DNA from: Planctomycetota bacterium
GTDB taxonomy: Bacteria > Planctomycetota > Phycisphaerae > Sedimentisphaerales > Anaerohalosphaeraceae
DNA length: 40,362 nt
Direction of reading: 5' to 3'
Assembly: GCA_016873215.1 (NCBI GenBank)
Contig: VGXU01000020.1
Location: 1-40,362 of the forward strand
Shown: positions 20,318 through 20,628 of the stretch, one piece after another
Numbering within the stretch: the stretch's first letter is position 1
How the letters are laid out: every line of letters begins with the position of its first letter
The notes under the pieces: generated by a model
The model's input: only the letters and a program-made list of their open reading frames with translations
What the model was told of the DNA's origin: nothing
Databases searched by the model: none
Program-made: the position numbers and the translations under genes

Positions 20318-20370
20318 TGGGCAATAGAATGGTAAAATCCGAATCGAGACGGTTCGGCTGCTTTAAAGAA

Positions 20371-20406
20371 TAAGCGCCCTGTCCACGCGCTTGCGGGCAG
20401 GGCGCC
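20371..20406. repeat. GC-rich hairpin element related to the one at 2611-2650
   Basis: GCGCCCTG (20374-20381) pairs with CAGGGCGC (20398-20405), with partial pairing continuing inside. It shares the CCCTG-CCACGC-GCAGGG layout with the earlier hairpin and lies about 55 bp after the cyclophilin gene. There is no T run. Confidence 0.5.
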
Positions 20407-20462
20407 AACTCTGAAATTATGTTCCTGTTTAAGTTTCCGTCAACCTAAACATCATACGCATC

Positions 20463-20513
20463 AAAAAGGGAGGCAAGCACATTTACGTTTAATAAATTGT
20501 AGGCTGCGCTCCC
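20463..20513 (-). terminator. Intrinsic terminator of the candidate small RNA
   Basis: GGGAG (20513-20509) pairs with CTCCC (20472-20468). The stem continues with small bulges through GCAG/TTGC and ACA-TTTA/TAAATGT, closing on a loop of about 7 nt. Five T residues (20467-20463) follow the 3' arm at once. Confidence 0.65.
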
Positions 20514-20593
20514 TGTTGCCCGCTGTGCTGTTTTCGAACGTTCCCAGGATTCGTTCATTTCGGCGTTAACCGCCTTAGGTTTGCACCGGCAAC
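20463..20593 (-). ncRNA. Candidate stand-alone structured small RNA
   Basis: Read leftward from a predicted start near 20593, the ~130-nt transcript folds locally. The 5' GTTGCC (20593-20588) pairs with GGCAAC (20520-20515), and inside it GTGC (20586-20583) pairs with GCAC (20528-20525). Two enclosed hairpins follow: GGCG/CGCC (20574-20571 with 20565-20562) and GAACG/CGTTC (20556-20552 with 20540-20536). A long terminator hairpin ending in five U completes it. A good promoter lies directly upstream. There is no reading frame of note and no gene downstream on that strand, so a riboswitch is unlikely. It does not match tmRNA, SRP RNA, RNase P RNA or the riboswitches I can recall. 6S RNA is not excluded. 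Confidence 0.5.
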
Positions 20594-20599
20594 ACATAT

Positions 20600-20628
20600 A
20601 ATATAACCCATAATGGATATGAAGTCAA
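20600..20628 (-). promoter_or_regulatory. Strong promoter of the candidate small RNA
   Basis: On the minus strand TTGACT (20628-20623) and TATATT (20605-20600) are separated by exactly 17 bp. Each differs from consensus at one position. The predicted start falls at about 20593, the exact 5' end of the closing stem of the RNA. Confidence 0.65.

What the first reader, a model, noticed from the sequence alone, without database searches (positions are those of the whole stretch)
20463..20628. Stand-alone structured small RNA gene with promoter and terminator and no reading frame
In a 483-bp non-coding gap, the minus strand carries a TTGACT-17-TATATT promoter. About 7 bp later a transcript begins exactly at a closing stem (GTTGCC/GGCAAC, then GTGC/GCAC) that encloses two hairpins (GGCG/CGCC and GAACG/CGTTC). 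A long bulged terminator hairpin with U5 follows. Promoter, fold and terminator agree on one direction and one length of about 130 nt, and no gene lies downstream for a riboswitch to control. I do not recognise it as tmRNA, SRP RNA, RNase P RNA or a known riboswitch, so it may be a lineage-specific regulatory RNA or a divergent 6S-like RNA.
Basis: partly seen in the sequence, partly recalled or inferred. Interest (0 to 1): 0.72.

Follow-up and report, generated by a model that had tools for sequence, protein, structure and literature searches.

The report
New conserved small RNA, Phycisphaerae bacteria
The stretch is a real gene for a folded RNA of about 130 letters that makes no protein, is kept across one group of poorly studied planctomycete bacteria, is in no RNA family library we could search, and carries a self-matching loop suggesting that two copies pair with each other.

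Summary
Folding energy alone is not decisive (z -1.64), but homology is. A covariance model finds the RNA in 99 of 161 genomes of the window's order (Sedimentisphaerales/Phycisphaerae, Planctomycetota), essentially once per genome in the window's family and up to four diverged copies elsewhere. Compensatory changes support the fold: 18 of 29 pairs change on both sides; one P1 pair occurs as GC, CG, AU and UA. The promoter sits at a fixed distance; downstream genes point either way (61 same, 57 opposite), so it is not a cis leader. No Rfam family matches any member tested; the same genome has separate 6S and SRP RNAs; no Hfq or Ro60 was found.

Main-type copies that depart from it adopt other self-complementary cores (CCUAGG, CCAUGG, UCGCGA; wobble CCUGGG in the window). 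Adjacent central bases cannot pair within one chain, so this points to a kissing-loop homodimer, the logic used for OLE and GOLLD RNAs.

Verdict: a new, lineage-restricted family of stand-alone structured RNAs, probably trans-acting, perhaps dimeric. Expression, partner and function are untested.

The parts
20600..20628 (-). sigma-70-type promoter TTGACT-17-TATATT
   Evidence: promoter of at least 9/12 in 88% of 138 homologs against 3% of shuffles, at a fixed distance in most
20463..20595 (-). RNA gene as modelled, 133 nt; the true 5' end is probably within a few bases
   Evidence: CM hits with full-length matches; no transcript data
20588..20593 (-). P1, 5' strand GTTGCC
   Evidence: pairs with 20515-20520; covariation
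20583..20586 (-). P1b, 5' strand GTGC
   Evidence: pairs with 20525-20528
20562..20574 (-). P2 hairpin GGCG-GTTAA-CGCC
   Evidence: all 4 pairs change on both sides somewhere
20536..20556 (-). P3 hairpin GAACG-loop-CGTTC
20543..20548 (-). self-complementary core CCTGGG in the P3 loop (CCGCGG in most main-type homologs), proposed kissing-dimer site
20525..20528 (-). P1b, 3' strand GCAC
20515..20520 (-). P1, 3' strand GGCAAC
20463..20514 (-). bulged intrinsic terminator; 5' arm AGGGAG with the conserved segment GCAGCCTACAA, 3' arm CTCCCT, T5
   Evidence: terminator pairs covary; the model match ends in TTT in 122 of 140 homologs
20456..20462 (-). GATGCGT, the window's divergent form of a TATGCGC motif just after the T-run
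   Evidence: TGCGC in 78 of 139 homologs against 1.5% by chance

Best explanation
This is a stand-alone gene for a structured non-coding RNA of about 130 nt, transcribed from its own sigma-70-type promoter and ended by its own terminator. The RNA folds into a core closed by P1 (6-7 bp) and P1b (4 bp) that branches into hairpins P2 and P3, followed by the terminator hairpin. It most likely acts in trans. The P3 loop shows a six-base palindrome, and two copies probably join through it as a kissing-loop homodimer, presenting two copies of the conserved core and of the exposed segment in the terminator hairpin (GGCCYACAA) to a partner, which I rank as slightly more likely a protein than an mRNA. 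Shown by sequence: the gene, fold, promoter, terminator, distribution, independence from neighbouring genes, and the pattern of loop changes. Inferred: expression level, dimer formation, trans action, partner type. Rough likelihoods: real conserved RNA gene 0.97; not a cis leader 0.9; dimer 0.5; protein partner rather than base-pairing to mRNA about even.
For: Matches in 33 of 39 genomes of the family, one copy each apart from a weak antisense match in one, and in 99 of 161 of the order. An exact-pattern scan of about 85,000 species gave 42 hits; those from Planctomycetota that were re-scored match the model and the 8 others do not. Covariation in a structure-fitted alignment, in a structure-free one and by RNAalifold (19 of 27 pairs with compensatory changes). 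Pair 9-119 was not in the model that built the alignment, yet shows AU 22, GC 19, UA 4, GU 4. Promoter at a fixed distance. Downstream gene 61 same strand, 57 opposite. Neighbouring genes differ between genera. Dimer: the copies scoring at least 80 bits that were listed carry CCGCGG or a self-complementary replacement; the P3 loop is closed by a pair that itself covaries (AU 59, GC 3), leaving a 7-nt loop; two random substitutions keep Watson-Crick self-complementarity in 9 of 135 outcomes, so three independent lineages doing so has p about 3e-4, four 2e-5; no clear intramolecular partner for the loop. PMC12286853 uses the same test for OLE and GOLLD.
Against: No expression data. Some lineages (for example genera g28, g34, g38) and most diverged paralogs have lost P3 or its palindrome, so a dimer cannot be needed for every member. 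The window's own core, CCUGGG, pairs with itself only with two G-U pairs and, like L002, sits one base out of register. The other families of the order (f2-f6) gave almost no match (one, in f2), so the RNA is dispensable at that scale. The p-values assume independent lineages and a simple substitution model, and the choice of 'main-type' copies was made after seeing the loops.
Confidence: 0.6

Rival explanations
1. A monomeric, Hfq-independent antisense RNA that pairs with mRNAs through conserved single-stranded segments (P3 loop or the GGCCYACAA part of the terminator hairpin); the palindrome is incidental or contacts a target.
For: Own promoter and terminator, no cis gene, diverged paralogs in family f7 as in sRNA families, strongly conserved unpaired segments. 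Hfq not found in this genome.
Against: Loop variants move from one palindrome to another, which a fixed mRNA target would not predict; much of the conservation lies in paired, covarying structure.
Confidence: 0.25
2. A cis-acting leader (riboswitch or attenuator) whose downstream gene has been lost or moved in the window.
For: Compact junction followed by a terminator resembles riboswitch layout; a same-strand gene lies within about 200 nt in many loci.
Against: Downstream orientation is even, 61 to 57; downstream families differ between genera; no upstream sequence that complements the GGGAG arm to form an antiterminator was seen (by eye).
Confidence: 0.05
3. A CsrA-binding decoy: the conserved ACARGGA at the P1-terminator junction captures CsrA.
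For: CsrA is encoded in this genome; A-N-GGA occurs in 126 of 140 copies.
Against: Most copies have only one or two GGA, and the conserved one is paired inside the terminator stem with covariation; CsrB-type decoys have many GGA in loops (own knowledge).
Confidence: 0.06
4. A chance arrangement of promoter-like, stem-like and terminator-like sequence.
For: Single-sequence fold z-score only -1.64.
Against: Homology and covariation across dozens of genera.
Confidence: 0.01

Closest known systems
OLE, GOLLD and ROOL RNAs (PMC12286853)
   Same: Structured bacterial RNAs in which symmetric loops kiss between identical chains; palindrome-to-palindrome changes in a loop were used as evidence of intermolecular pairing for OLE and GOLLD.
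   Different: Those are large RNAs whose oligomers were seen by cryo-EM; this one is about 130 nt with an unrelated fold, found only in Phycisphaerae, and its dimer is only predicted.
6S RNA (RF00013)
   Same: Stand-alone, structured RNA gene with a sigma-70-type promoter.
   Different: No match here; separate 6S gene in the same genome and in 125 of 159 genomes of the order; branched junction, not a long bulged hairpin.
HIV-1 DIS and similar palindromic kissing hairpins (PMC7357161)
   Same: Six-nucleotide palindrome in an apical loop as the dimer contact.
   Different: Part of a viral genome and unrelated; used only as a mechanistic analogy.
Multi-copy trans-acting sRNA families of bacteria
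   Same: Own promoter and terminator, intergenic, duplicated and diverging copies.
   Different: Hfq not found in this genome; conservation is dominated by a covarying structured core; no known target.
Rhodopirellula-1 motif (PMC2864571)
   Same: A planctomycete structured-RNA candidate listed without an Rfam accession.
   Different: Listed for Proteobacteria and Planctomycetes, with a 'y' in what I read as the cis-regulatory column; our family is not cis and was found only in Phycisphaerae. No direct sequence comparison was possible.

Membership tests
6S RNA (RF00013) | Match to the Rfam model above gathering score | tested here: not met
   No 6S match in the gap; true 6S at G000:C56 with 57.6 bits
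6S RNA (RF00013) | Long double-stranded hairpin with a central bulge | tested here: not met
   Consensus is a closed junction with two hairpins plus terminator
Any Rfam 15 family | Score above a family's gathering cut-off | tested here: not met
   Only a tRNA in the window; best weak hit 21.4 bits against a cut-off of 60; seven other loci also without a hit at the RNA
SRP RNA (RF00169) | Match to the SRP model | tested here: not met
   The genome's SRP RNA is elsewhere, G000:C6, 54.3 bits
Y RNA / YrlA | Ro60 (TROVE) partner protein in the genome | tested here: not met
   TROVE in 0 of 159 genomes of the order
Riboswitch or attenuator | Consistent same-strand downstream gene | tested here: not met
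   61 same strand, 57 opposite
CsrB/RsmZ-type CsrA decoy | Many GGA motifs in hairpin loops | tested here: not met
   GGA count is 1 or 2 in 124 of 140 copies; the conserved one is in a stem
Kissing-loop RNA homodimer | Palindromic apical loop with palindrome-to-palindrome changes | tested here: met
   in main-type copies; lost in most paralogs and some lineages
Kissing-loop RNA homodimer | Dimer observed in solution or by structure | not testable with these tools
   Needs native gel, mass photometry or cryo-EM

The most novel reading that the evidence does not exclude
A previously undescribed small RNA family of Phycisphaerae that works as a kissing-loop homodimer, an unusually small natural stand-alone bacterial RNA with sequence evidence for homodimerisation, whose duplicated copies in one family have shed the dimer loop and specialised.
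Probability: 0.45. Interest if true: 0.75.

Novelty: new variant of a known kind. Interest (0 to 1): 0.62.

Why it matters
The literature searches found nothing on this RNA, and little on non-coding RNA in Planctomycetota. A conserved RNA of about 130 nt with sequence evidence for homodimerisation would be a small, tractable case for studying natural RNA-RNA assembly, which one review calls rarely observed in nature (PMC7357161). It also gives a concrete annotation target: a model that finds the gene in 99 of 161 genomes of the order.

Tried and rejected
Mimicry of the 16S 530 loop (the 9-mer CCGCGGUAA matches it, from memory): disfavoured because departing lineages change the loop to other palindromes rather than keeping the rRNA sequence. 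Intramolecular pseudoknot of the loop: no complement clearly beyond chance. Y RNA: no TROVE protein. 6S, SRP: separate genes exist. Small-protein mRNA: lengths not kept in frame. L009 of the first DNA search and L069-L071 of the R1 search were judged false hits (coding sequence, or no promoter and terminator). The TATGCGC motif as a general terminator feature: T-runs elsewhere in the same loci carry it at about the rate I estimate for chance. Pairing of that motif with the 5' GUGCA: variants do not seem to covary (by eye). Literature searches found no description of this RNA. Laying out the whole genome for a target search was not possible.

Full report
What is there. By folding energy alone it is not special (z -1.64, 12 of 200 shuffles as good). 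No Rfam family reaches its cut-off anywhere in the window except a tRNA, nor is there a convincing hit at relaxed thresholds in the gap or at the RNA in seven other loci.

It is a conserved gene. A DNA search of 59 genomes (the window's own included) found eight strong matches in relatives, one of which, L009, proved to be coding sequence. A covariance model from five members found it in 33 of 39 genomes of the family, one copy each apart from a weak antisense match in one genome; one of the 33 is weak too, E 0.06. An exact-pattern scan of about 85,000 species returned 42 loci; the re-scored ones from Phycisphaerae, Sedimentisphaerales or Planctomycetota match the model, the eight from elsewhere do not. 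A second model found 99 of 161 genomes of the order. In the class sample it found two families outside the order, f12 strongly and f24 weakly, the latter at a locus I had judged a false hit; in the phylum sample it found only the window's own family. Family f7 genomes often carry two to four diverged copies.

The structure is supported by covariation. On the R1-fitted alignment 18 of 29 pairs change on both sides, against a mean of 11.1 in shuffles and at most 8 when slid. The fit is not the whole cause: pair 9-119 was absent from R1 yet appears as AU 22, GC 19, UA 4, GU 4; a MAFFT alignment of 74 main-type copies made without structure ranks the same P1, P2, P3 and terminator pairs high, though shared ancestry also lifts some spurious pairs there; RNAalifold predicts the same fold with 19 of 27 compensatory pairs, on an alignment fitted by the second model.

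It is a stand-alone gene. 88% of 138 copies have a promoter of at least 9/12 (shuffles 3%), at one fixed distance in most. By a simple reading-frame caller the nearest downstream gene is same-strand in 61 and opposite in 57 copies, and its family changes between genera. Lengths are spread over all remainders mod 3, and the 50-codon frame in the window is not kept.

It is not a known housekeeping RNA. The same genome has 6S (57.6 bits) and SRP RNA (54.3 bits) elsewhere; 6S is in 125 of 159 genomes of the order. Ro60 was not found in the order and no Hfq was found in this genome, while CsrA is present.

The palindromic loop. P3 ends in a loop closed by a pair that covaries (AU 59, GC 3), leaving seven nucleotides that include CCGCGG in most main-type copies. 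Main-type copies that depart from it have CCAUGG (two, in different families), CCUAGG (two), UCGCGA, or the wobble-palindromes UUGCGA and CCUGGG; L002 and the window have theirs one base out of register. The central two bases are neighbours and cannot pair within one chain, so GC to AU or UA points to pairing between two molecules. With two random substitutions, 9 of 135 outcomes stay Watson-Crick self-complementary, giving 3e-4 for three lineages and 2e-5 for four; this assumes independence. The loop has no intramolecular partner clearly beyond chance. The same reasoning was published for OLE and GOLLD (PMC12286853). Most f7 paralogs and a few genera have lost this hairpin or its palindrome, so the dimer, if real, belongs to the main copy.

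How it probably works. Shown: gene, fold, fixed promoter, terminator, distribution. Inferred: strong expression (from the near-consensus promoter), dimer formation, and trans action on a partner. I rank a protein partner slightly above mRNA pairing because the conservation is mostly structural and Hfq was not found, but nothing here decides it.

Limits. Genomes are largely drafts, so absences are soft. E-values from the session's models are rough.

Noticed in passing
window 20456-20462 (-) and the same position in homologs: A TATGCGC motif just after the terminator's T-run: TGCGC within 16 nt in 78 of 139 homologs (chance 1.5%), in 32 of 45 genera. Not a general feature of T-runs in these loci. 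Unexplained.
   Followed up: partly
loci L128-L223 (mostly family f7): Diverged paralogs replace the GGCCYACAA segment of the terminator arm by GGGUGACGAAAAG-like sequence and often lose P3, as if a second subfamily had formed.
   Followed up: partly
window 20365-20410: A second G+C-rich inverted repeat (GCGCCCTG...CAGGGCGC) just after the convergent cyclophilin gene, possibly its terminator.
   Followed up: no
G000, contig C56 13232-13413 and order-wide: 6S RNA reaches the Rfam cut-off in 112 of 159 genomes of the order, each listed genome with one match.
   Followed up: no
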